From Ktedonobacteraceae bacterium (lineage in GTDB: Bacteria > Chloroflexota > Ktedonobacteria > Ktedonobacterales > Ktedonobacteraceae): 37,479 bases of DNA. Where the stretch lies: assembly GCA_013695595.1 (NCBI GenBank), contig JACDAE010000090.1, forward strand, positions 1-37,479, given 5' to 3'. This document shows, in pieces, positions 2,047 through 14,477 of the stretch; position 1 is the first letter of the stretch, and the number at the start of each line of letters is the position of its first letter. Position numbers and translations under genes: made by a program. The notes below the pieces were generated by a model. That model saw only the letters and a program-made list of their open reading frames with translations, had not been told where the DNA came from and did no database searches.

Positions 2047-2087
2047 GTCAAATATGGTAAGGGAATGAGGAGGGAAGGGATAGTCAA

Positions 2088-2158
2088 GGTGCCGTGACCG
2101 AGAGGATAGGTGTTGCTCTGCAAAAGCAATTACGGCGGTTCGACTCCGCCCGGTATCT
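2088..2158 (+). tRNA. tRNA-Cys(GCA)
   Basis: Acceptor ggtgccg/cggtatc, anticodon loop ctGCAaa, T-arm ggcgg-ttcgact-ccgcc, discriminator T73 as expected for Cys. No encoded CCA. Confidence 0.9.
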
Positions 2159-2166
2159 TTTTCAGT

Positions 2167-2237
2167 GGGGCAGTAGCTCAGTGGTAGAGCTCCAGGTTGT
2201 GGCTCTGGCGATGCTGGTTCGATTCCAGCCTGTCCCT
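2167..2237 (+). tRNA. tRNA-His(GTG), apparently without an encoded G-1
   Basis: Acceptor ggggcag/ctgtccc, anticodon loop ttGTGgc, T-arm gctgg-ttcgatt-ccagc. Confidence 0.82.
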
Positions 2238-2271
2238 TTTATGGTGGCAATTAGTTCAAGGCCATCATTTT

Positions 2272-2345
2272 GTTGGTGTGGTGCAATCGGTAGACACGCT
2301 TGTCTTAGAAGCAAGTAGTTGAGAGTTCGAGTCTCTCCACCAACA
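2272..2345 (+). tRNA. tRNA-Leu(TAG)-like with a short (5-nt) variable loop
   Basis: Acceptor gttggtg/caccaac (7 perfect bp), anticodon loop ctTAGaa, T-arm gagag-ttcgagt-ctctc, Leu-like D-arm (tggtgcaatcggtagacac), A73. Confidence 0.82.
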
Positions 2346-2348
2346 TGA

Positions 2349-2421
2349 GCGGGTGAGGACAAAGGGTAGCGTCATCTGTCTGTCGAACAGAACATAGTGG
2401 GTTCGAGTCCCATCTCCCGCG
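2349..2421 (+). tRNA. tRNA-Asp(GTC)
   Basis: Acceptor gcgggtg/ctcccgc (one T-T mismatch), anticodon loop ctGTCga, T-arm gtggg-ttcgagt-cccat, discriminator G73. Confidence 0.86.
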
Positions 2422-2447
2422 TTTCAAGGTTACGTCAATTTGTGTAT

Positions 2448-2520
2448 GGGTCCGTGGCGCAATTGGTAGCGCACCTGTTTTGCATACAGGGGGTTGAGGG
2501 TTCGAGTCCCTCCGGTTCCA
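2448..2520 (+). tRNA. tRNA-Ala(TGC)
   Basis: Anticodon loop ttTGCat, G3-U70 Ala identity pair, A73, D-stem gcgc/gcgc, T-arm gaggg-ttcgagt-ccctc. Confidence 0.88.
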
Positions 2521-2524
2521 CTCT

Positions 2525-2606
2525 GGATGGTTGGCAGAATGGCGATTGCACCTGTCTGTAAAACAGCGCCCTTTGGGGCATGGAGGTTCGAATCCTCCAC
2601 CATCCA
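2525..2606 (+). tRNA. tRNA-Tyr(GTA), class II with long variable arm
   Basis: Acceptor ggatggt/accatcc, anticodon loop ctGTAaa, variable arm gcccttt-ggggc, T-arm ggagg-ttcgaat-cctcc, A73. Confidence 0.9.
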
Positions 2607-2729
2607 TTTTTCTGCTTAAGCACTTGAAAATCATGACAGTTACACTGTAACATCTCTCATGTCATGACAGTTATGCTGTTATATATGAATTTGGAGCTTA
2701 TTCTATTAAAATTTATGAGGTCACTACCC

Positions 2730-4133
2730 CTATTGGCCCTGACCAAGGGTAAGTTGAGCCATCATCTGACCCTCATTGTAGGCAATAAGCGCACCGGCTT
2801 CGCCTGTAACAGGGTCAACCTGTCCATCATCATCACGATCAACGCCGTTCAATACATGATCGGCAAGCGTAGCGATCTCTGTGATGAGAGCGGTATTGAC
2901 AGGATTAGCGACGAGTTGCTGAGCATCATTGTCAATGGTTGTGACCCACTTTTTGATATTGGCTGTGGCAATCTGCACATGTTGCGCATGCATTCTCACA
3001 GTGGGAGTTGCATCACTCTGGATAGCTGCCAATGCTGCATGCTCCGCCGAAAGGACGATATACCCAGCGTTGGGATCACCTGGATTCAGCAGACCAAAGC
3101 CATCGCCCACATTGGTCACGTTAAACGCTGCACAATCATCGGCAAGTGGCAGGGCATTCTTTCCACCAGTACCTTCGATAAGATTAACAATATTTTGCGC
3201 TGCACAGGCCGTTTTATGTTGCCCCTTGCCAGAAAATCTTTGCAATAGTTGCGCCTGCTGCTTTAACACCTGAGCTTGACTACGTAAACCAACCAGCAGT
3301 CCTATTTTGCCAGGCGTAGTATCGAAACGGACAAGCAAGTGCCGTATATGAATCAGAGCCAGAGGAGGGAGCGTTCCCGATAGCACCACTTCTCCTGCCG
3401 GGAACATAGGATTTCCGGGTTCCTGGGTAATTTCCAATTGATCACCCAGGCCAAGCAGGTTGATTTTATCTGTAAAGGCCAGGTTAAAATTCTGACCTTG
3501 AGCGGCAAGCCTCCCCAGTGCCACAGTTTTCTCTGAGGCGGCATCAACGATCCAGGCGTAATAGTGTAGATTATTTGGAGGTACACCCAGGCCACTGATC
3601 TTCAGGTTGAGGGTATTCGTCTGCCCCTGACCATTTTGACTATCACTAAAAGAGACTAAACCTCTGGCACCAGTACTGGTAATAGCATTTTTTGCATTTG
3701 TATTATCGCTTTTGTGATGTGCTAGAGCGATGAGGCCAGCGGAAGTACCAATAACAAGCATGAGGAGGAGAAGCACAATAAACACATTGCGTACAAGATA
3801 TTCAGGCTGTGTACGCCAGGGGAATAATGGTGCCGGTTCGTTTGAAAGTGCAGATGGAGTTGGATCAGAGCGTACAGGTACAGGAGTCTGCTTAATGGCA
3901 AACGACGCGGGTGAAAACGATGATTGTGGCGGGGGAGGAGGCATCTGCATTACAGGTCTGCGGGGTATAGCATTCCTATAAGGAGTGCTGCGCTTCAATC
4001 CATCTGAGCCGACACTTACAATAGGTTCGGCAACAGTTGCTCCTCGCGCTCTGAGTGGCACTATCTGTTTACCACAATTACCACAGAAGATCGCATCCTC
4101 ATCGCATAACGTCTTACAACCTGGACAGAACAT
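2730..4133 (-). CDS. Zinc-ribbon (CPGC...CGNC) membrane protein with large extracytoplasmic domain
   Basis: MFCPGCKTLCDEDAIFCGNCGKQ, TM NVFIVLLLLMLVIGTSAGLIAL, EF-hand-like DRDDDGQVD near C-terminus. RBS ggaggggg before the ATG at 4133 (longer ORF to 4163). Confidence 0.8.
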   Translation of the reverse strand: MFCPGCKTLCDEDAIFCGNCGKQIVPLRARGATVAEPIVSVGSDGLKRSTPYRNAIPRRPVMQMPPPPPQSSFSPASFAIKQTPVPVRSDPTPSALSNEPAPLFPWRTQPEYLVRNVFIVLLLLMLVIGTSAGLIALAHHKSDNTNAKNAITSTGARGLVSFSDSQNGQGQTNTLNLKISGLGVPPNNLHYYAWIVDAASEKTVALGRLAAQGQNFNLAFTDKINLLGLGDQLEITQEPGNPMFPAGEVVLSGTLPPLALIHIRHLLVRFDTTPGKIGLLVGLRSQAQVLKQQAQLLQRFSGKGQHKTACAAQNIVNLIEGTGGKNALPLADDCAAFNVTNVGDGFGLLNPGDPNAGYIVLSAEHAALAAIQSDATPTVRMHAQHVQIATANIKKWVTTIDNDAQQLVANPVNTALITEIATLADHVLNGVDRDDDGQVDPVTGEAGALIAYNEGQMMAQLTLGQGQ

Positions 4134-4198
4134 GGATATTTCCCCCTCCAGCCAACTAGACAAACGGCATGAAAAGACTTCTTTACATCACTAAACGC

Positions 4199-5092
4199 TT
4201 ATGCCGCAGCAATAATGTGGAATACATTTGTCAATAACTCCATAACGCCGTGATAACTGATAACAAGCAATGCGATACAGGCCAATGTGATGTGGGTAGT
4301 GCGCCAGACACGCATGATCAAACGCGCACGCTGCTGACGCCTGCATGACTGTAAGAGATCCGCACGAGTAACCAGCGTATCGTGAGCATTTTGAAAATCG
4401 GAGCGTTCAGCTACAGGAATGGCTGGAAATTTGCTTTGGAGGTTGCCCGAACCAAGGGCTTGCATACAATATTTCTTGAATAGCTCAGACTTGCCAGCAC
4501 AAAGACGCTCAACGGTATACTCTAATTCAAGAATACGTTCTTCCACAGCACGCACGATCCCTACCCCATTGGTGTTCGCTTCACGCGCAATTACGTGCGT
4601 CTGCCACAGATCTAACAGACGGCCAGTAACACCGCTGATGACCAGGAAGATGAGAGAGAAGAGCGCTAAACCAGCCCAGTAGGTATCTGTCAGATCACTA
4701 AATTTGGTAACAAAACTATTCGTAACGAAGGCATAATTTTCATGCAATAAGGCAATTGTGATAGTAATGACACCGAGCCATGTATGCATCCATAGCCAGC
4801 TTTGCACCTTGCCTGGCAGACTGCGTACAAAACGGCGACGCAGCGAATAGGCGGCGGTACTCAGAACCAGAACATACGCAAGAATGCCAAAGAGGCGGAA
4901 GGGATCATTTCCGGGCGCAGCATCACCCTGGGCTTTGCTGGCCAGGTAGAACCAGACATAAATAGCAACATAGAATAGGATGCTGCCAATGAGCCAGAAC
5001 CATTTCGTCCGGGCGGCGGGAGTGCGCCAGATGCGTCGTAATGGGCGCTCGCCTGATGTCTGTACCGATGGTCGTTTTACTACAAGAGACAT
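4199..5092 (-). CDS. Membrane cytochrome b / ferric-reductase-like protein
   Basis: About five TM segments. Candidate heme-ligand His pairs MHTWLGVITITIALLHENY and THITLACIALLVISYHGVM. Start MSLVVKRPSV inferred, avoiding overlap with the upstream gene. Confidence 0.72.
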   Translation of the reverse strand: MSLVVKRPSVQTSGERPLRRIWRTPAARTKWFWLIGSILFYVAIYVWFYLASKAQGDAAPGNDPFRLFGILAYVLVLSTAAYSLRRRFVRSLPGKVQSWLWMHTWLGVITITIALLHENYAFVTNSFVTKFSDLTDTYWAGLALFSLIFLVISGVTGRLLDLWQTHVIAREANTNGVGIVRAVEERILELEYTVERLCAGKSELFKKYCMQALGSGNLQSKFPAIPVAERSDFQNAHDTLVTRADLLQSCRRQQRARLIMRVWRTTHITLACIALLVISYHGVMELLTNVFHIIAAA

Positions 5093-5109
5093 ACTCTCTA
5101 TTTCCTCCT

Positions 5110-7062
5110 CTATCGGGCACGTCGTCGAAGAATTTCTTCGGTTGACCCAAAAAATGTAGTTGGATTCACGCGAATTGCAGCTCCCGTAGGGCATGCCTGC
5201 ACGCACGCTTGATTATCATAACCAGCACATAGATCACATTTGATTGCCAGTTTTTTGCGCATCTCTTCAAAAGCTCCACCAGGGCGCTGGATATTTAGTG
5301 GACCAGGAGCCGCAGCCATGGGAAGTAATTTCTGTCCACGCTCTTTTCCCGCGCCCTTCGTGAAAAAAGTACTGAATTGCTGCCACGTCGATGGTGCATT
5401 CTCGTTCGCATTACGATCATCATCATCATCAAGCGAGACAATAGAAATATTATCGTATGGACAACGTTCAGCACAGATGCCACAACCAATACAACTCTCG
5501 GTGATGTAGACTTCTCCACCAGGCATGCGAGCAATACCCGCACGGCTACAGAGCATACAGACCGGGTCCTGACATTGTCGGCAGGCGGTCGCAATGCTAA
5601 TATTGCCAACGACCATCCCTTTACGATTCATGCGTGAATGCCCATGACGGCGTTCACATGCTTCTTCGCATTCGTTGCAGTGGATGCACTTATCAAGATC
5701 GATCACCAATACTTCGGTCCCCTCGACCACACCATCAGCAACCAGAGAATGCAAACCGGCGCGAGTCGCAGCATCTGAGAGCGAGTTGACTTCTTCTGGC
5801 TCCGCGAAATTGAAGGGTTCAAAGACTGCACTATAGGCAATCTCAGTCGCATCGCGATAGAGTTGCAGGCGCTCCTGGAAGCGTTGATTGACCTCAGGAT
5901 AGCGTGTGAGAAGTGACATAAGAACCGGGCGTGGTAATTGAGCAACGCTAGTACGTGTAATAGCAGTGACGGTGACGGCGCGTCGATCGCCGAGCATATC
6001 CAGGCCCCCAGCGAAGTAATCACCGCCCTGACGATAGGCGATAATGCGTTCATCAGACTTGTCTCGACCAGTGCCTGCGGTTGTACGTCGCGCAACTTTG
6101 ACGAAGCCTTCCAACAATATATGCAATGACTCGCGCGAGGGCTGATCTTTACTATCTTCACCGAAAAGGCGCTCGTCGCGATCATGGCGCTGAATCTGGG
6201 CCTGTTCAGCAATCTGGCGAATATCAGTAGCCATCACGCCCTGGAAAAGAGACATGCGTTTAAGGATGGACTCAGTAGAGCGGGTGGCGCTCAAACGATC
6301 GAAGAACTGGCGTACGGGAGGAACGATCTCCATCAGGCGCTGCATAACCTGTTCTGGCACTCCCAGTACAATCGAAGGGGTCTGAGCACGAGCACTCACA
6401 TTCTGCGGCTGACCCGTCAGCATACCATATTCGCCCATATACTCACCACGCCGCAGCACTGCAACAGGAAGTTCTTCGCCATCTGGCCCTGTGGAAGAAA
6501 GCTCAAATCGTCCTTCCAGAATGAAGTATAGTTCGCGTCCAAACTCGTTTTCACGCAGAACAACGGAACCTGGCATGAGTGCAATCACTTTGGAGGTCGC
6601 AACAAAATGCAGCAGATAATTGTCTGGTACCAGGCGTGGATCGCTAAACATTGGTTGTTCGCGCAAATGACTCAACAGACGCGGCACATCCCAACCAGGC
6701 GGTAGATAATTGAGGACGCGCGTCATATCAACCTTGCCATCCCAAGGTATACCGAGGCGCTGCTTGAGCGAAAGCATAAGGAGATCGCGGTGATTATCAA
6801 CCGGACAAACAGGCACGCATGAGCCGCACATAACACATTCATCGATGAAGCGTGCTACAGGCGGTGAAATCTCATCTGAGACATTGGCACGGTTCAAAGC
6901 AGCGATATTGATCATTGACGATAATGGAACTGGACAGGCACGCATGCAACGATCGCAGCCGATACACATATCAATCTCAAAACGTACTTCCTCTTCAGTG
7001 AGAGGTTGTATATCTGTGCGATGCGATAACCCTACTAAAAAAGGTGTATTTTGTACCTGCAT
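5110..7062 (-). CDS. Multi-cluster 4Fe-4S ferredoxin with two cyclic-nucleotide-binding (CAP_ED) domains
   Basis: CIGCDRCMRACP, CVMCGSCVPVCP, then two cNMP-binding-type domains, then DmsB/HycB-like CIHCNECEEAC, CIGCGICAERCP and CDLCAGYDNQACVQACP. Confidence 0.88.
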   Translation of the reverse strand: MQVQNTPFLVGLSHRTDIQPLTEEEVRFEIDMCIGCDRCMRACPVPLSSMINIAALNRANVSDEISPPVARFIDECVMCGSCVPVCPVDNHRDLLMLSLKQRLGIPWDGKVDMTRVLNYLPPGWDVPRLLSHLREQPMFSDPRLVPDNYLLHFVATSKVIALMPGSVVLRENEFGRELYFILEGRFELSSTGPDGEELPVAVLRRGEYMGEYGMLTGQPQNVSARAQTPSIVLGVPEQVMQRLMEIVPPVRQFFDRLSATRSTESILKRMSLFQGVMATDIRQIAEQAQIQRHDRDERLFGEDSKDQPSRESLHILLEGFVKVARRTTAGTGRDKSDERIIAYRQGGDYFAGGLDMLGDRRAVTVTAITRTSVAQLPRPVLMSLLTRYPEVNQRFQERLQLYRDATEIAYSAVFEPFNFAEPEEVNSLSDAATRAGLHSLVADGVVEGTEVLVIDLDKCIHCNECEEACERRHGHSRMNRKGMVVGNISIATACRQCQDPVCMLCSRAGIARMPGGEVYITESCIGCGICAERCPYDNISIVSLDDDDDRNANENAPSTWQQFSTFFTKGAGKERGQKLLPMAAAPGPLNIQRPGGAFEEMRKKLAIKCDLCAGYDNQACVQACPTGAAIRVNPTTFFGSTEEILRRRAR

Positions 7063-7072
7063 AAGCGTTTTC

Positions 7073-9556
7073 CTATATCATCGATGCTAATGGCGCACTA
7101 CAACTGGCGCAAAATCGTGCAATACGCGTATTTACTCCACCACATTTACTACAAACAACGAGTTGTGGCAAGGAAGCAGATTGACTGCTATCTTGCTTCA
7201 CAACCTGTCGACGTGTAACAGGTTCCCGTTCCCGCTGTGGAGCAGGAGGAGAAGCGACCTGAGGTCGTCGTTCCATCTTTTCCCCGACCTGGGCAACATT
7301 CTGTTGAACATTCCTGTTCACAGTAGCAGCAGGCCGCCTGCTAGTCTCTGTCTTTTCCGCAACTTGAGGCGCACGAACCGTAGTCTCAGCCATAGTGCGT
7401 AGATCGACGAAATAAAGCATACATCCACCTAGAGAAACATGGTCACCGTGCGAGAGCCGATATGGATTATCAATGCGCGTCTGATTCACCATAACGCCGT
7501 TACTGCTGCCCAGGTCGCGAATATAAAAACCAGTCGGGCCAGTGAAGACTTCAGCATGTCGGCGCGAAACGACTGGATCTGCAAGCTCAATATCCATACC
7601 TTCCTCTCGTCCGAGCAGCATTCGCTTCTCATTATTAAGGAGAAAGACTATAGGAGGGCGATTGCCTTCTTGCGTTGTATCCTCTGTCAGTACAATGAAT
7701 GCGGCAGATTCTTTAAAGGTGGCAACAACTCCAGCGGGAAGGGACATCTTTGCGCCGGGTAGAAGGAGCGAACCATCGAGTTTGAGCACTGGTTGGCCCA
7801 GTTTACCTGCATCTGCTTCCTGCATCTCTGGAATACCTGCCAGAGAAGGGCTGCCTTCGGGAATCTTTTTTGCCTGCTTATCGATACTACGCATAACGAA
7901 ACTAAATTTTACGACTTTCCCAAAACGTACTATGTCCCTGGTTTTGAGTATATACGTACTTGAAGGTTCCAGGCGCATATCGTTCACGAACGTACCATTG
8001 GAGCTACCCAGATCATGAAGGATATATTGACCATTGAGGTAGCTAATTTCGGCCTGACGGCGTGAAACGGTCGCTTCATCGAGCAAAAGCTGCACACCTG
8101 GTTGACGACCAATGGTAAGCACTTTCGTCTGACTTAGCAGCATCTCCCCGGACTGGCCGGGCGTTTGATCTATTGGAACCAACAAAGCTTCAACGAGAGG
8201 TCGTTGCTCAAGCACGATATTGGTTGACATTCCTTCCGGGTATGCCGCACGCTTAAGCGCGGCATCTCCTGATCTGCTGACACTCAAAATAGGCGGTGGA
8301 ACGCCCTGTCGATCGAGCCACTCATTCAATTTGAAACTATCCTCAAACAACACAGAGGCTACAGGGAGCAGATTAACGCGATGATCGATGGCACGTTTGA
8401 AAGTAAGCGCCTGTTTGCGATTGCCAAGCGAGAGCATACCCACTGGTATACCATCTTTTAGCAACACTTTACGATACATACGCGGCCTGGGTTTGGCAAT
8501 AATCTCCTGATAGCCTGGAGCATTTGTAATACCAACCGAGGCGAAATCGAGTCCATAGAGAAACGTAGCATTATAGAAAGTGCTGGCTTGAAAAGAAGTG
8601 TTGTTGTCAAGTAGATCAAGCATACTATATGCTGCGGCGCGTGCCTGCTGAACGGCGGGATACCATTGTCCAAGCACACGTGTACGACCAGTGAGTTGAT
8701 CTGTCGTTTCAACGACATCGCCGGCGGCATAGATATCAAGGGTATTGGTACGCATCCTACTATCAATACGCACACCTCGTCCGCAGGCAATCCCACTTGC
8801 TTTAATAAAATCTATTATCGGTTCGATGCCAATGGCAATAACAACCGTTTCACAGGCAATTTGTTCGCCGCTCTTCGTCACTAACCCGCTCACGCTCCCT
8901 TGATCCCCAAAAATCTCAACGACTTCTTCTTCCAGCCGCACATCGACTCCATCGCGTTGTTCTTGCTGTAGTACGAGGTCAGAGGCAGTCGCATCGAGAA
9001 CTTCAGACCAGACCGTACGTCGTCGTAAAATATGAGTGACGGAATAATTGCGGTGCCTCAGCGTCTCAATAGTTTCCAATGCCAGGGTACCACTTCCAAT
9101 AACCACAACATGCCGTGTCTCATTCAGATTCTGCAATAGCGCCTGATAGTCATTGACATGGCGTAAAGTGTAGACGCCTTGTAACTGTTGACCTGGACAA
9201 TTCAGGCGTGCGGGACGGGCACCATTTGCTAACAATAAACGGTTATAGCTAAGCTGACGACCACTTTGAAGCTGCACACGATGTTGGGCTGGCTGTATAC
9301 CTACAACGCGCTCAGGCAAAAAGCGAATCATATGATCCTGGTAAAAGCTGGTAGAGCGTGCACTCAATTTATCTTCGGAGAGGCGACCACCTAGATAATC
9401 TTTCAAGGCAGGACGATAATAAACAGGAGAGGGATCGTCGGCAATCACCCCAACAGTCGCTGCGGAATCTTCTGCACGCAAAATCTCAGCGGCAGTTGCA
9501 CCAGCAATGCCGTTTCCAATAACCAGATATGTTGGGGCTATTTGCTCCTCAGCCAT
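7073..9556 (-). CDS. FAD-dependent NAD(P) oxidoreductase (NirB/rubredoxin-reductase-like) fused to two FHA domains and a C-terminal zinc ribbon
   Basis: YLVIGNGIAGATAAE FAD motif, YAAGDVVE. FHA motifs GRQPG..VSRRQAEI..DLGSSNGTFVN and GREEG..VSRRHAEV..DLGSSNGVMVN. CSKCGG...CASCSAP. RBS ggagg before MAEEQ. Confidence 0.9.
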   Translation of the reverse strand: MAEEQIAPTYLVIGNGIAGATAAEILRAEDSAATVGVIADDPSPVYYRPALKDYLGGRLSEDKLSARSTSFYQDHMIRFLPERVVGIQPAQHRVQLQSGRQLSYNRLLLANGARPARLNCPGQQLQGVYTLRHVNDYQALLQNLNETRHVVVIGSGTLALETIETLRHRNYSVTHILRRRTVWSEVLDATASDLVLQQEQRDGVDVRLEEEVVEIFGDQGSVSGLVTKSGEQIACETVVIAIGIEPIIDFIKASGIACGRGVRIDSRMRTNTLDIYAAGDVVETTDQLTGRTRVLGQWYPAVQQARAAAYSMLDLLDNNTSFQASTFYNATFLYGLDFASVGITNAPGYQEIIAKPRPRMYRKVLLKDGIPVGMLSLGNRKQALTFKRAIDHRVNLLPVASVLFEDSFKLNEWLDRQGVPPPILSVSRSGDAALKRAAYPEGMSTNIVLEQRPLVEALLVPIDQTPGQSGEMLLSQTKVLTIGRQPGVQLLLDEATVSRRQAEISYLNGQYILHDLGSSNGTFVNDMRLEPSSTYILKTRDIVRFGKVVKFSFVMRSIDKQAKKIPEGSPSLAGIPEMQEADAGKLGQPVLKLDGSLLLPGAKMSLPAGVVATFKESAAFIVLTEDTTQEGNRPPIVFLLNNEKRMLLGREEGMDIELADPVVSRRHAEVFTGPTGFYIRDLGSSNGVMVNQTRIDNPYRLSHGDHVSLGGCMLYFVDLRTMAETTVRAPQVAEKTETSRRPAATVNRNVQQNVAQVGEKMERRPQVASPPAPQREREPVTRRQVVKQDSSQSASLPQLVVCSKCGGVNTRIARFCASCSAPLASMI

Positions 9557-9637
9557 TCCAATCCTCCACAATTCCAGGCAAGCAACCCAATATATAGGTA
9601 AAGCTACTACTATATAGTTTCAAATAACCAGCCATTT

Positions 9638-11104
9638 CTATGTTGTGATCGTGCCATCAGCAAGAACAGTGATTTTAATAGAAGCAAGGGGGGTTTGTGC
9701 TGGCCCCTGAACAACTGCAGCATTCCGAGCCGGGTTGAAAGCAGCATCGTGACACGGACATTTTAGTAAGCTATCCTGCACATCATAATGAACCGAACAG
9801 CCAGCATGAGTACAGGTCGTATCGAATGCAACAAACTTGTTATCTGGCAAATGAATAATCACACCAGGATTATGCTGATTAGCAATAGGAAAAGTTCTCG
9901 CGCTATTCAGCGGCAGATCTGCACGATGCGCCAGAACGCTGCCATTTCCTCCCGGCTTTCCTTTGGCAGGTGCTGGCGCAGCAGGCAGAGTTTGCTGTGT
10001 ATTTGGAGCACCCTTTCCACCAACAGGAGAGTTATTTTGCACTATTTTTACGCCCGCAATGCCTCCCACCGTCACTAGACCACCACCAGCAGCAAGCAAT
10101 ATAACCAGGCGGCGACGCGACATATGTACCCGTTTACGTTTCAATTTCACAAGCTTCAACGAAGAAGAGGTCTGATTCAATGATTGCATTGGAAACGGTG
10201 TAACAGGTAGTACAGTATTTATAGGAGAGTATGGCTCGTCCGGCGCAACGATCTGATGATAGGCCTGAGCAAATGCGACAGGCTGACGATAGCGCTGCAT
10301 AGGCTCCTTCGCCATAGCCTTTGTGATAATAAGATTGAGTCCAACTGGAAGTCCCTCACGCCACACCTTCAAAGATGGAACCTCCGCATAGAGATGCTGG
10401 CGTGTGACCTCCTCGCGCGACTTCCCACTAAATGGGGAATGGCCGGTAAGTAAGCGATAAAGCACGGCACCCATTGCATAAATATCTGTATAAGCGTCAA
10501 CTGGCTTGCCAAGCAACTGCTCTGGAGAACTGGATTCGCTACTACCGCTAAATTTGTTGGTTCGTTGATCCTCATGGAGGCTTAATTCATACATACGCAT
10601 CAACCCAAATTCACCTACCGTCAGTTGTCTGTTCGCTTGCATATAAATGCAGGCAGTTGACAGATTGCGGTGAATTACCGCATGCTGATGTGCATATTCA
10701 AGGGCGGAGGCAAACTGATCAAGGTAGCGACCAACCGAATTCAGATCGGTGGGAACATTCTGTGCGAGCAGGCTACGCAGGGAAGTCAGAGGAACATGTG
10801 GATAGACCAGATATGGGATGCTCTGATAGTTACCATAATCGAGAAGTGGCAAAATGTGAGGATGCTGAAGGGATGCGACCTGATTTGCCTCCTGTTGAAA
10901 GCGTCCCAGAAAGACAATATGCGCATCGGTATTGAGTTCATTCTCTTGAAATTGGGTGCCCACAAAGCGAATGACATAGGAAGTTCCAGCTCGCGAGCTC
11001 GCCATGAAGACAGGACCCCATTTGCTCTGTTCCAGCAATTGTTCCAGATGATAATTGCCCACAGTGGCCCCAATAAATTTCTCCAGAAATGGACGCTCAA
11101 TCAT
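9638..11104 (-). CDS. Pseudokinase-TM-Rieske [2Fe-2S] fusion protein
   Basis: Kinase fold with degenerate motifs (VIRFV, HRNLSTACIY, VGEFG). SRRRLVILLAAGGGLVTVGGIAG membrane segment. Rieske motifs CTHAGC and CPCHDA. RBS ggggagg before MIERPF. Confidence 0.9.
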   Translation of the reverse strand: MIERPFLEKFIGATVGNYHLEQLLEQSKWGPVFMASSRAGTSYVIRFVGTQFQENELNTDAHIVFLGRFQQEANQVASLQHPHILPLLDYGNYQSIPYLVYPHVPLTSLRSLLAQNVPTDLNSVGRYLDQFASALEYAHQHAVIHRNLSTACIYMQANRQLTVGEFGLMRMYELSLHEDQRTNKFSGSSESSSPEQLLGKPVDAYTDIYAMGAVLYRLLTGHSPFSGKSREEVTRQHLYAEVPSLKVWREGLPVGLNLIITKAMAKEPMQRYRQPVAFAQAYHQIVAPDEPYSPINTVLPVTPFPMQSLNQTSSSLKLVKLKRKRVHMSRRRLVILLAAGGGLVTVGGIAGVKIVQNNSPVGGKGAPNTQQTLPAAPAPAKGKPGGNGSVLAHRADLPLNSARTFPIANQHNPGVIIHLPDNKFVAFDTTCTHAGCSVHYDVQDSLLKCPCHDAAFNPARNAAVVQGPAQTPLASIKITVLADGTITT

Positions 11105-12616: not shown

Positions 12617-13507
12617 ATGTCAAAGCACCCGCTGGCTGAAGTATTTGGATTTACTACCCGTGATTTCTCTTCAGATGCCGAGAGATATCGGAGAAACAAG
12701 TTGTGCCCGTTTAATAATAAAGTTCCCTCGTGTACAAAAGATAAAGCTGAGAAGCCGCTAGGAGTTTGTAGTGTATACGATGCAGATAAAGTAGTCATTA
12801 CCTGTCCAATACGCTTTCGTCAAGATTGGCTGATAGCTGAAGATGCTGCTTCCTTCTTCTTTCCAGCAAATTTATCCTGGACCTCCCTTACAGAAGTCCG
12901 CATCAATGATAAATATGGGCGTTCAGCGGGCAATATAGATGTGGTACTTGTTGCATATGACGATACTGGCCGCATTGTTGATTTTGGTTCGCTCGAAGTC
13001 CAGGCTGTCTATATTTCAGGCAATATCCGTAGAGCATTTGAATACTATATGGAAGCACCGACTGATCGTGCAAATATGGACTGGTCGAAGCAACGCAACT
13101 ATCCACGTCCAGACTATCTCTCTTCTTCACGTAAGAGATTAGCTCCTCAACTCATTTACAAAGGTGGTATCCTTCATGCGTGGGATAAAAAGCAAGCAGT
13201 TGCAGTAGATAATAACTTCTTCAATACTCTGCCTCGTATGGATGAAGTTTCGCAAGAAGAGGCTGAAATGGCATGGCTAGTTTATGATCTTGAACTTAAT
13301 TCATCACAAACCCGCTATCGTTTGAGCCGTTCCAGGACAGTTTACACGCAATTTATCCCCGCGTTGGATAAAATCACAACAGCGGAACCTGGCAATGTAC
13401 AAAATTTCATTGAACATCTACAGGAGAAACTAGATGAAAAGTTAGAAAGCGGCGCACCTCCAGACGCCCCTACATTGCTTGATGCTCTTGGAGGAGAGAG
13501 CTTGTAG
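12617..13507 (+). CDS. NotI-family type II restriction endonuclease
   Basis: Resemblance to NotI recalled from family knowledge: CPF..C..GVCS..CP metal-binding cysteines and the LEVQ (LEIQ-like) catalytic segment. Adjacent methylase. Confidence 0.8.
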   Translation: MSKHPLAEVFGFTTRDFSSDAERYRRNKLCPFNNKVPSCTKDKAEKPLGVCSVYDADKVVITCPIRFRQDWLIAEDAASFFFPANLSWTSLTEVRINDKYGRSAGNIDVVLVAYDDTGRIVDFGSLEVQAVYISGNIRRAFEYYMEAPTDRANMDWSKQRNYPRPDYLSSSRKRLAPQLIYKGGILHAWDKKQAVAVDNNFFNTLPRMDEVSQEEAEMAWLVYDLELNSSQTRYRLSRSRTVYTQFIPALDKITTAEPGNVQNFIEHLQEKLDEKLESGAPPDAPTLLDALGGESL

Positions 13508-13559
13508 AGATTTGTCTCCTTGTATTTGTTTACGATGCGATATTCTTGTGGAGTAATAG

Positions 13560-14477
13560 ATGCAATACACATTATTTGATAATGTCAGATCTATATCAAT
13601 TGTAAATGTAAGCTCAGTCCCTAAGCGTAGTCCTTTCCGTTATGCGGGTGGCAAAACCTGGATCATTCCTCATATCAGGCTATGGCTATCTTCACAAATC
13701 AGGCAAAGGTACAATCTCACACCTATTCAACCCTTACTACTAGTTGAACCTTTTGCGGGAGGAGCAGCTGTAAGTCTAACCGTAGCAGCCGAGAAGCTTG
13801 CTGACCACGTTATCATGGTCGAATTAGACGAAGAAGTGGCGGCGGTATGGCAAACTATTCTTGACGAAAACAATTGGGCATGGCTTGCAGACGAAATCGA
13901 AACTTTCGATCTCATCAATAAGAATGTTGAAGCTCTTCTCGCAAAAACCAGCCTCACGCAAAAAGAACTGGCATTTAAAACTATTATCAGAAATCGTGTC
14001 AATCGTGGTGGTATTTTAGCCCCTGGTGCCGGTATTCTTAAAGAAGGTGAAAATGGAAAAGGACTTAAATCACGCTGGTACCCAACTACACTCAAAAAAA
14101 GAATACAGGCAATTGTAAAGATGAGAGATACCATCAGCTTCATAGCCGGTGATGGGCTGCAAATCCTTAAAGAGAATAGCGAACGTCCTGACACAGTATT
14201 CTTCATCGATCCTCCATACACAGTGGGAGGGAAAAAAGCAGGAAAGCGCCTTTACAAGCATTTTGAGCTAAACCATGAAGAGTTATTTGAAATTGCTGAC
14301 AAGTTGCAAGGTGATTTTCTAATGACCTATGATGATACAGATGAAATACGAGCACTTGCAAAGGCACATAATTTTGATGTCCAGACTGTGCCTATGAAAA
14401 ATACGCATCATGCAAAAATGAATGAATTATGCATAGGCCCCAACCTGGAATGGTTGCGGCCGGCTTTACAGTTGTAA
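13560..14477 (+). CDS. DNA adenine methylase, D12/Dam class
   Basis: PFRYAGGKTWIIP (SAM motif), FAGGAAVSL, FIDPPYTVGG (DPPY catalytic motif). Confidence 0.92.
   Translation: MQYTLFDNVRSISIVNVSSVPKRSPFRYAGGKTWIIPHIRLWLSSQIRQRYNLTPIQPLLLVEPFAGGAAVSLTVAAEKLADHVIMVELDEEVAAVWQTILDENNWAWLADEIETFDLINKNVEALLAKTSLTQKELAFKTIIRNRVNRGGILAPGAGILKEGENGKGLKSRWYPTTLKKRIQAIVKMRDTISFIAGDGLQILKENSERPDTVFFIDPPYTVGGKKAGKRLYKHFELNHEELFEIADKLQGDFLMTYDDTDEIRALAKAHNFDVQTVPMKNTHHAKMNELCIGPNLEWLRPALQL

What the first reader, a model, noticed from the sequence alone, without database searches (positions are those of the whole stretch)
2730..11104. Five-gene operon: apparent signal-controlled transmembrane electron-transfer chain
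Seen: five minus-strand genes with short gaps (about 81, 10, 17 and 65 bp) in the order pseudokinase-TM-Rieske, FAD/NAD(P) reductase-2xFHA-zinc ribbon, six-motif 4Fe-4S ferredoxin with two cNMP-binding folds, His-rich membrane cytochrome b-like protein, zinc-ribbon TM protein. Known: FHA domains bind phosphothreonine, cNMP folds sense ligands or redox state, and Rieske plus b-type hemes plus Fe-S plus FAD make a complete electron path. Inference: an electron wire from NAD(P)H across the membrane, gated by kinase/FHA signalling. An active-type Ser/Thr kinase sits only about 1 kb past the operon end, beyond the tRNA array. I know of no named system with this composition.
Basis: partly seen in the sequence, partly recalled or inferred. 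Interest (0 to 1): 0.85.

Follow-up and report, generated by a model that had tools for sequence, protein, structure and literature searches.

The report
Signal-domain-laden transmembrane electron-transfer operon
In soil bacteria of the family Ktedonobacteraceae, five neighbouring genes look like the parts of a wire that carries electrons from NAD(P)H in the cell across the membrane, and several of these parts are fused to signalling domains that could switch the current on and off.

Summary
The five-gene operon is real. It comes from a Ktedonobacteraceae MAG (Chloroflexota). The block p4-p3-p2 (FAD reductase-FHA / ferredoxin-cNMP / cytochrome b) recurs in 18 Ktedonobacteraceae genomes and was found nowhere else among 400 Chloroflexota.

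New findings: (1) The redox core is older than the signalling parts. A bare ferredoxin + FAD reductase + cytochrome b set is near-universal in the family. In other Chloroflexota it sits beside a 15-30-haem cytochrome c; a Sphingobium plasmid joins similar parts differently. (2) In 25 such cytochromes b only four histidines are invariant (H-x13-H twice), as expected for a two-haem membrane wire. (3) All 24 cysteines of p3 are invariant, enough for six clusters. (4) The kinase part of p5 lacks Lys, HRD-Asp and DFG-Asp; its Rieske ligands are intact. (5) In relatives the p5-type pseudokinase and the p1 ectodomain are one protein. (6) p4 and p3 are fused in three genomes.

Best reading: an outward NAD(P)H electron conduit in which Rieske/p1 replaced multihaem cytochrome c, with FHA, cNMP and pseudokinase regulation. 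The redox path is well supported; gating is inference; the final acceptor is unknown.

The parts
9638..11104 (-). p5: pseudokinase-TM-Rieske protein; start at 11104 (homologs begin M-V/I-E-R)
10226..11086 (-). p5 pseudokinase domain (VAIK Lys to Arg, HRD to HRN, DFG to EFG)
10049..10105 (-). p5 transmembrane helix, preceded by RRR (Tat-like)
9647..9934 (-). p5 Rieske domain outside the membrane, CTH...CPCH intact
7073..9556 (-). p4: FAD/NAD(P) reductase - FHA1 - FHA2 - zinc ribbon
8342..9529 (-). p4 ferredoxin-reductase-type FAD/NAD(P) domain
7895..8122 (-). p4 FHA1
7406..7621 (-). p4 FHA2 (canonical GR / SRRH / SSNG)
7088..7159 (-). p4 C-terminal zinc ribbon
5110..7062 (-). p3: six-cluster ferredoxin with two cNMP-binding folds
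6793..6981 (-). p3 N-terminal 2[4Fe-4S] domain, homologous to the stand-alone ferredoxin of the minimal triad
6313..6600 (-). p3 cNMP fold 1 (Glu kept; cassette Arg kept in 12 of 16 homologs, Gln here)
5863..6180 (-). p3 cNMP fold 2 (cassette Glu lost)
5167..5715 (-). p3 C-terminal four-cluster HydN/DmsB-type ferredoxin domain
4199..5092 (-). p2: five-TM ferric-reductase-like cytochrome b
4742..4786 (-). p2 TM3 predicted haem ligands H103 and H117 (H-x13-H)
4250..4294 (-). p2 TM5 predicted haem ligands H267 and H281 (H-x13-H)
2730..4133 (-). p1: zinc ribbon - TM - RskA_C-like beta domain - helical domain
2733..3686 (-). p1 ectodomain, in other Ktedonobacteria fused directly to a p5-type pseudokinase

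Best explanation
The operon encodes a membrane complex that moves electrons outward from NAD(P)H. p4 oxidises NAD(P)H on FAD, passes electrons to the 4Fe-4S clusters of p3, then to the inner haem (H103/H267) and outer haem (H117/H281) of p2, and on to the Rieske cluster of p5 outside the membrane, which reduces a still unknown acceptor. It derives from a simpler ferredoxin/reductase/cytochrome b module whose outside partner in other Chloroflexota is a multihaem cytochrome c. In Ktedonobacteria, where that cytochrome family was not found, p5 and p1 fill the outer and receptor places. FHA domains on p4, cNMP folds on p3 and the pseudokinase of p5 probably control assembly or flow. Shown: anatomy, conserved ligands, synteny, natural fusions. 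Inferred: direction, complex formation, gating.
For: p4-p3-p2 are contiguous and co-directional in every intact Ktedonobacteraceae locus inspected; p4+p3 are one polypeptide in three genomes. 24 of 24 Cys of p3 invariant. Four His, and no other His, invariant in 25 cytochromes b from Ktedonobacteria, other Chloroflexota and Sphingobium; five predicted TM. Rieske ligands invariant in all six kinase-Rieske proteins aligned; kinase catalytic residues lost in all five whose motifs are covered. A bare triad exists across Ktedonobacteraceae; ferredoxin/reductase/cytochrome b/15-30-haem c operons in other Chloroflexota; FAD-2cNMP-ferredoxin, cytochrome b and FHA-10-haem c together in Sphingobium. No Cytochrome_C7 match in 47 Ktedonobacteria genomes. 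Pseudokinase fused to the p1 ectodomain, beside a FAD reductase in two genomes.
Against: No biochemistry. p5 is adjacent in only eight of the 18 genomes (plus a divergent kinase-Rieske in another genus) and absent near the operon in Dictyobacter, so it cannot be the only outlet. Foldseek gave no significant match for the p2 model, and only 8 of 17 cytochromes match Ferric_reduct. The acceptor is unidentified. cNMP1 lost its Arg here and cNMP2 its Glu, so cyclic-nucleotide binding is doubtful in this copy. No evidence that any of the proteins is phosphorylated.
Confidence: 0.6

Rival explanations
1. A redox sensor rather than a power line: the chain reports NAD(P)H or envelope redox state, and the FHA, cNMP, zinc-ribbon and pseudokinase parts transmit that state to kinases or other regulators.
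For: High density of signalling domains; the p1 ectodomain carries an RskA_C-like domain and is a receptor ectodomain in relatives; no catalytic end enzyme in the operon.
Against: Six clusters, FAD and two haems are excessive for sensing; the signal-free core is kept on its own and with multihaem cytochromes, so electron transfer looks like the ancestral job.
Confidence: 0.17
2. A quinone-linked enzyme: p2 reduces menaquinone with electrons from NAD(P)H (an alternative NAD(P)H:quinone oxidoreductase), and the Rieske works elsewhere or oxidises the quinol.
For: Many multi-subunit Fe-S/cytochrome b complexes are quinone-linked; the operon lacks a dedicated end acceptor; the Rieske resembles the bc1/b6f type.
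Against: p2 has no recognisable quinone-site family match; its relatives sit beside multihaem cytochromes c outside the membrane, which points to an outside acceptor.
Confidence: 0.13
3. A split NADPH oxidase or ferric reductase: p2 itself passes electrons to O2, Fe(III) or Cu(II) outside, and p5 and p1 are accessory or regulatory.
For: Ferric_reduct match and NOX-like H-x13-H pairs; elaborated operons exist without p5.
Against: The outer haem has a conserved bis-His set and a conserved partner gene in many lineages; a Rieske beside it would be pointless.
Confidence: 0.07
4. Independent genes that merely share a transcript, without a common electron path.
For: p5 and p1 are not always present next to p4-p3-p2.
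Against: p4-p3-p2 order is conserved family-wide, p4-p3 fusions occur three times, and the bare triad has the same composition.
Confidence: 0.03

Closest known systems
NADPH oxidase / ferric reductase transmembrane superfamily (NOX, FRE, MsrQ)
   Same: H-x13-H pairs on two TM helices, as expected for two stacked b haems; NAD(P)H-FAD electrons cross the membrane outward.
   Different: Five TM and no fused FAD/NADPH domain; electrons arrive through a separate six-cluster ferredoxin and seem to leave to a Rieske or multihaem protein.
Ferredoxin/FAD reductase/cytochrome b/multihaem c operons of other Chloroflexota (found here)
   Same: Homologous reductase and four-His cytochrome b, plus a small 2[4Fe-4S] ferredoxin.
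   Different: Outside partner is a 15-30-haem cytochrome c; no FHA, cNMP, kinase or Rieske parts.
Sphingobium pMSHV cluster (FAD-2cNMP-ferredoxin / cytochrome b / FHA-10-haem c)
   Same: The same set of part types including FHA and two cNMP folds; the cNMP-ferredoxin and the cytochrome b are homologous to p3 and p2.
   Different: Reductase of another (TrxB-like) type and fused to the ferredoxin; FHA sits on the multihaem cytochrome; no kinase or Rieske.
BphA4/HcaD/putidaredoxin-reductase-type ferredoxin reductases
   Same: The N-terminal 400 residues of p4 (PDB hits to 1.6e-39).
   Different: Two FHA domains and a zinc ribbon added; partner is a 4Fe-4S cNMP ferredoxin; basic instead of acidic residues at the end of the second nucleotide strand.
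Cytochrome bc1/b6f and actinobacterial QcrA Rieske proteins
   Same: TM-anchored Rieske domain with the same ligands and disulfide.
   Different: N-terminal pseudokinase instead of a short tail; no bc1-type cytochrome b in the operon.

Membership tests
NOX/ferric reductase superfamily (p2) | Pfam Ferric_reduct match above cut-off | tested here: met
   29.1 bits against 28 for p2; only 8 of 17 homologs match at E<=0.1
NOX/ferric reductase superfamily (p2) | Four conserved His, two per helix, about 13 residues apart | tested here: met
   H103/H117/H267/H281 invariant in 25 sequences
NOX/ferric reductase superfamily (p2) | Fold match to solved NOX/STEAP structures | tested here: inconclusive
   No significant Foldseek hit; the model's last helix is drawn as one long helix
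NOX/ferric reductase superfamily (p2) | Fused FAD/NADPH-binding domain | tested here: not met
   p2 ends after the fifth TM helix; the reductase is a separate gene. So it is not filed as a NOX, only as NOX-like in action
Cytochrome bc1/b6f complex | bc1/b6f-type cytochrome b gene with the Rieske | tested here: not met
   p2 matches Ferric_reduct; no bc1-type cytochrome b match in the operon proteins
Rieske proteins (p5) | C-x-H-x15-17-C-x2-H ligand motif | tested here: met
   Invariant in six homologs
Active Ser/Thr protein kinases (p5) | VAIK Lys, HRD Asp, DFG Asp | tested here: not met
   All three replaced in five proteins
FHA domains (p4) | GR, SxxH and N-G phosphothreonine-site residues | tested here: met
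   FHA2 canonical; FHA1 has Q for H in the window
Cyclic-nucleotide-binding regulators (p3) | Phosphate-binding cassette Glu and Arg | tested here: inconclusive
   cNMP1 keeps Glu but Arg is Gln here (Arg in 12 of 16 homologs); cNMP2 lacks the Glu
Multihaem-c electron conduit | Adjacent multihaem cytochrome c | tested here: not met
   None in the operon; no Cytochrome_C7 in 47 Ktedonobacteria genomes, present beside the homologous core in other Chloroflexota
Functional electron-transfer complex | Haem and Fe-S content, NAD(P)H-dependent reduction, complex formation | not testable with these tools
   needs protein

The most novel reading that the evidence does not exclude
A bacterial transmembrane electron conduit whose flow is gated by phosphothreonine (FHA on the reductase), by ligand binding to cNMP folds on the ferredoxin, and by a pseudokinase fused to the Rieske outlet: a modular bacterial analogue of the regulated phagocyte NADPH oxidase, evolved from a signal-free core after loss of a multihaem cytochrome.
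Probability: 0.35. Interest if true: 0.9.

Novelty: new variant of a known kind. Interest (0 to 1): 0.7.

Why it matters
It would be a respiratory-type electron path with eukaryote-like signalling modules built directly onto its redox subunits, including an apparently undescribed pseudokinase-Rieske fusion, and a case where a multihaem outlet was exchanged for a Rieske protein. It also points to a wider, apparently unnamed ferredoxin/FAD reductase/four-His cytochrome b/multihaem c conduit in Chloroflexota, with a related assembly in Alphaproteobacteria. Cultured hosts of the p4-p3-p2 block (Dictyobacter, Ktedonosporobacter, Thermosporothrix) make both testable.

Tried and rejected
Foldseek of p2 and p1 models against the PDB gave nothing significant; the p1 top hit (Cu-only SOD, E 0.05) is not used. 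Sequence search of the PDB with p2 and p1 profiles: nothing useful. NCBIfam gives no model above its cut-off for any of the five among the rows shown. PADLOC matches are generic kinase or cNMP hits, so a defence reading is rejected. The active kinase at 8-1783 as dedicated partner: not beside the operon in relatives, rejected as an established part. Nine paper searches found no description of this composition; the library is open-access only. Searches outside Chloroflexota were limited to plasmids, so wider distribution was not measured. Promoter and terminator scans were at chance level and are not used. A contig with the end of another four-His cytochrome b gene in the same genome (L158) could not be linked to the second p4-p3 copy (L016).
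Full report
What is there. The window is contig C660 of a 6.7 Mb Ktedonobacteraceae (Chloroflexota) assembly. Domains: p5 pseudokinase-TM-Rieske; p4 BphA4/HcaD-type FAD reductase with two FHA domains and a zinc ribbon; p3 ferredoxin with two cNMP folds; p2 ferric-reductase-like cytochrome b; p1 zinc ribbon-TM-RskA_C-like domain plus a helical domain.

Is it conserved? Full-length p3 occurs in 18 of 400 sampled Chloroflexota genomes, all Ktedonobacteraceae. Around it p4, p3 and p2 keep order and strand in every intact locus inspected. p1 follows in many of them. p5 precedes in eight genomes of five genera (positions), and a divergent kinase-Rieske gene lies beside the fused version in another genus (L015/L055). 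In Dictyobacter, Ktedonosporobacter and the window a dnaE gene lies nearby, which points to vertical descent. p4 and p3 are one chain of 1,384-1,397 residues in L013 and L015, and one chain in a second copy in the window's own genome (L016). In one genome (L053) an IscB-like element sits between p5 and p4.

Redox anatomy. All 24 Cys of p3 are invariant in 16 homologs, enough for six 4Fe-4S clusters: two in the N-terminal domain and four in a HydN/DmsB-like domain. In p2, four His are invariant in 25 homologs, including Sphingobium and other Chloroflexota: H103/H117 on TM3 and H267/H281 on TM5 of a five-helix model with mean pLDDT 81. By the positive-inside rule (inference) H103/H267 face the cytoplasm and H117/H281 the outside. 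The reductase has no redox-active CxxC, and its second nucleotide strand ends in basic residues, suggesting NADPH (inference). The Rieske domain keeps its ligands and, in the p5 orthologs, the disulfide cysteines, but has mostly Ala/Phe where high-potential Rieske proteins have Ser/Tyr (CPCHGAVFD against CPCHGSHYD), so a moderate potential is expected (from general knowledge of Rieske proteins).

Signalling anatomy. The kinase domain has lost the VAIK Lys, HRD Asp and DFG Asp in the window and in four further proteins. It forms a clade (support 0.97) next to pseudokinases fused to the p1 ectodomain (0.91). Those fusions occur in seven loci of other Ktedonobacteria, two of them beside a FAD reductase of this family. 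So the two ends of the operon, p5 and p1, correspond to one receptor-like protein elsewhere. FHA2 is canonical; FHA1 has Gln for His here. cNMP1 keeps the cassette Glu, but the Arg is Gln in this copy; cNMP2 lacks the Glu. Class III nucleotide cyclases exist in the genome. None of this shows gating.

Where it comes from. Nearly all Ktedonobacteraceae carry a bare operon of FAD reductase without FHA, a 100-residue 2[4Fe-4S] ferredoxin about 49% identical to the N-terminus of p3, and a four-His cytochrome b. In other Chloroflexota, homologous reductase and cytochrome b genes with a small ferredoxin sit next to a 15-30-haem cytochrome c (L150-L153, L159). A Sphingobium plasmid has FAD reductase-2cNMP-ferredoxin, a cytochrome b and an FHA-TM-ten-haem cytochrome c; its cNMP-ferredoxin matches p3 at 31% identity over 471 columns. 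None of 47 Ktedonobacteria genomes has a Cytochrome_C7 match. The simplest story is that the multihaem outlet was lost, and in part of the family a Rieske fused to a pseudokinase took its place while signalling domains were added to reductase and ferredoxin. The order of these events was not tested with a rooted tree.

Mechanism, with status. NAD(P)H to FAD to 4Fe-4S to inner haem to outer haem: strongly implied by conserved ligands, synteny and fusions. Outer haem to Rieske: inferred, and only where p5 is present. Final acceptor: unknown. Gating by phosphothreonine, ligand or pseudokinase: inferred from domain content. Rivals are a redox sensor, a quinone-linked enzyme, and a split NADPH oxidase or ferric reductase.

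Novelty. No paper found in the open-access library describes this composition. The kind (haem-b transmembrane electron transfer) is known; this arrangement is a new variant, with an apparently undescribed wider core family.

Noticed in passing
window 12617-14477 (+): A NotI-family restriction endonuclease (PF12183, 213 bits) followed by a D12-class adenine methyltransferase: a type II restriction-modification pair beside the operon.
   Followed up: partly
window 2087-2607 (+): Six tRNA genes in 520 bp (Cys, His, Leu, Asp, Ala, Tyr), between the operon and the active kinase gene.
   Followed up: no
L053 4612-5829: An IscB-like RRXRR + HNH ORF inserted between p5 and p4.
   Followed up: partly
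L168 4932-7265, L173 4004-6556: A FAD reductase of this family with a long C-terminal extension, matched to AAA_25 (KaiC/RecA-like) in L168, next to a pseudokinase-p1-ectodomain fusion and, on its other side, a membrane protein that is FixH/YtkA-like in L168.
   Followed up: partly
L047 6795-7157, L050 4127-4501, L048 7031-7432: A small, apparently exported protein with a conserved HxxxH precedes the minimal triad: a possible metal- or haem-binding acceptor.
   Followed up: no
L105, L108, L111: In several Ktedonobacteria the closest Rieske domains are fused to DoxX-like membrane domains (recognised by eye).
   Followed up: no
L158 578-1498: In the window's own genome a cNMP_binding + DUF1003 protein lies beside the end of another four-His cytochrome b gene.
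   Followed up: no
L015 5388-7394: A divergent kinase-Rieske that has lost both disulfide cysteines while keeping the cluster ligands.
   Followed up: partly
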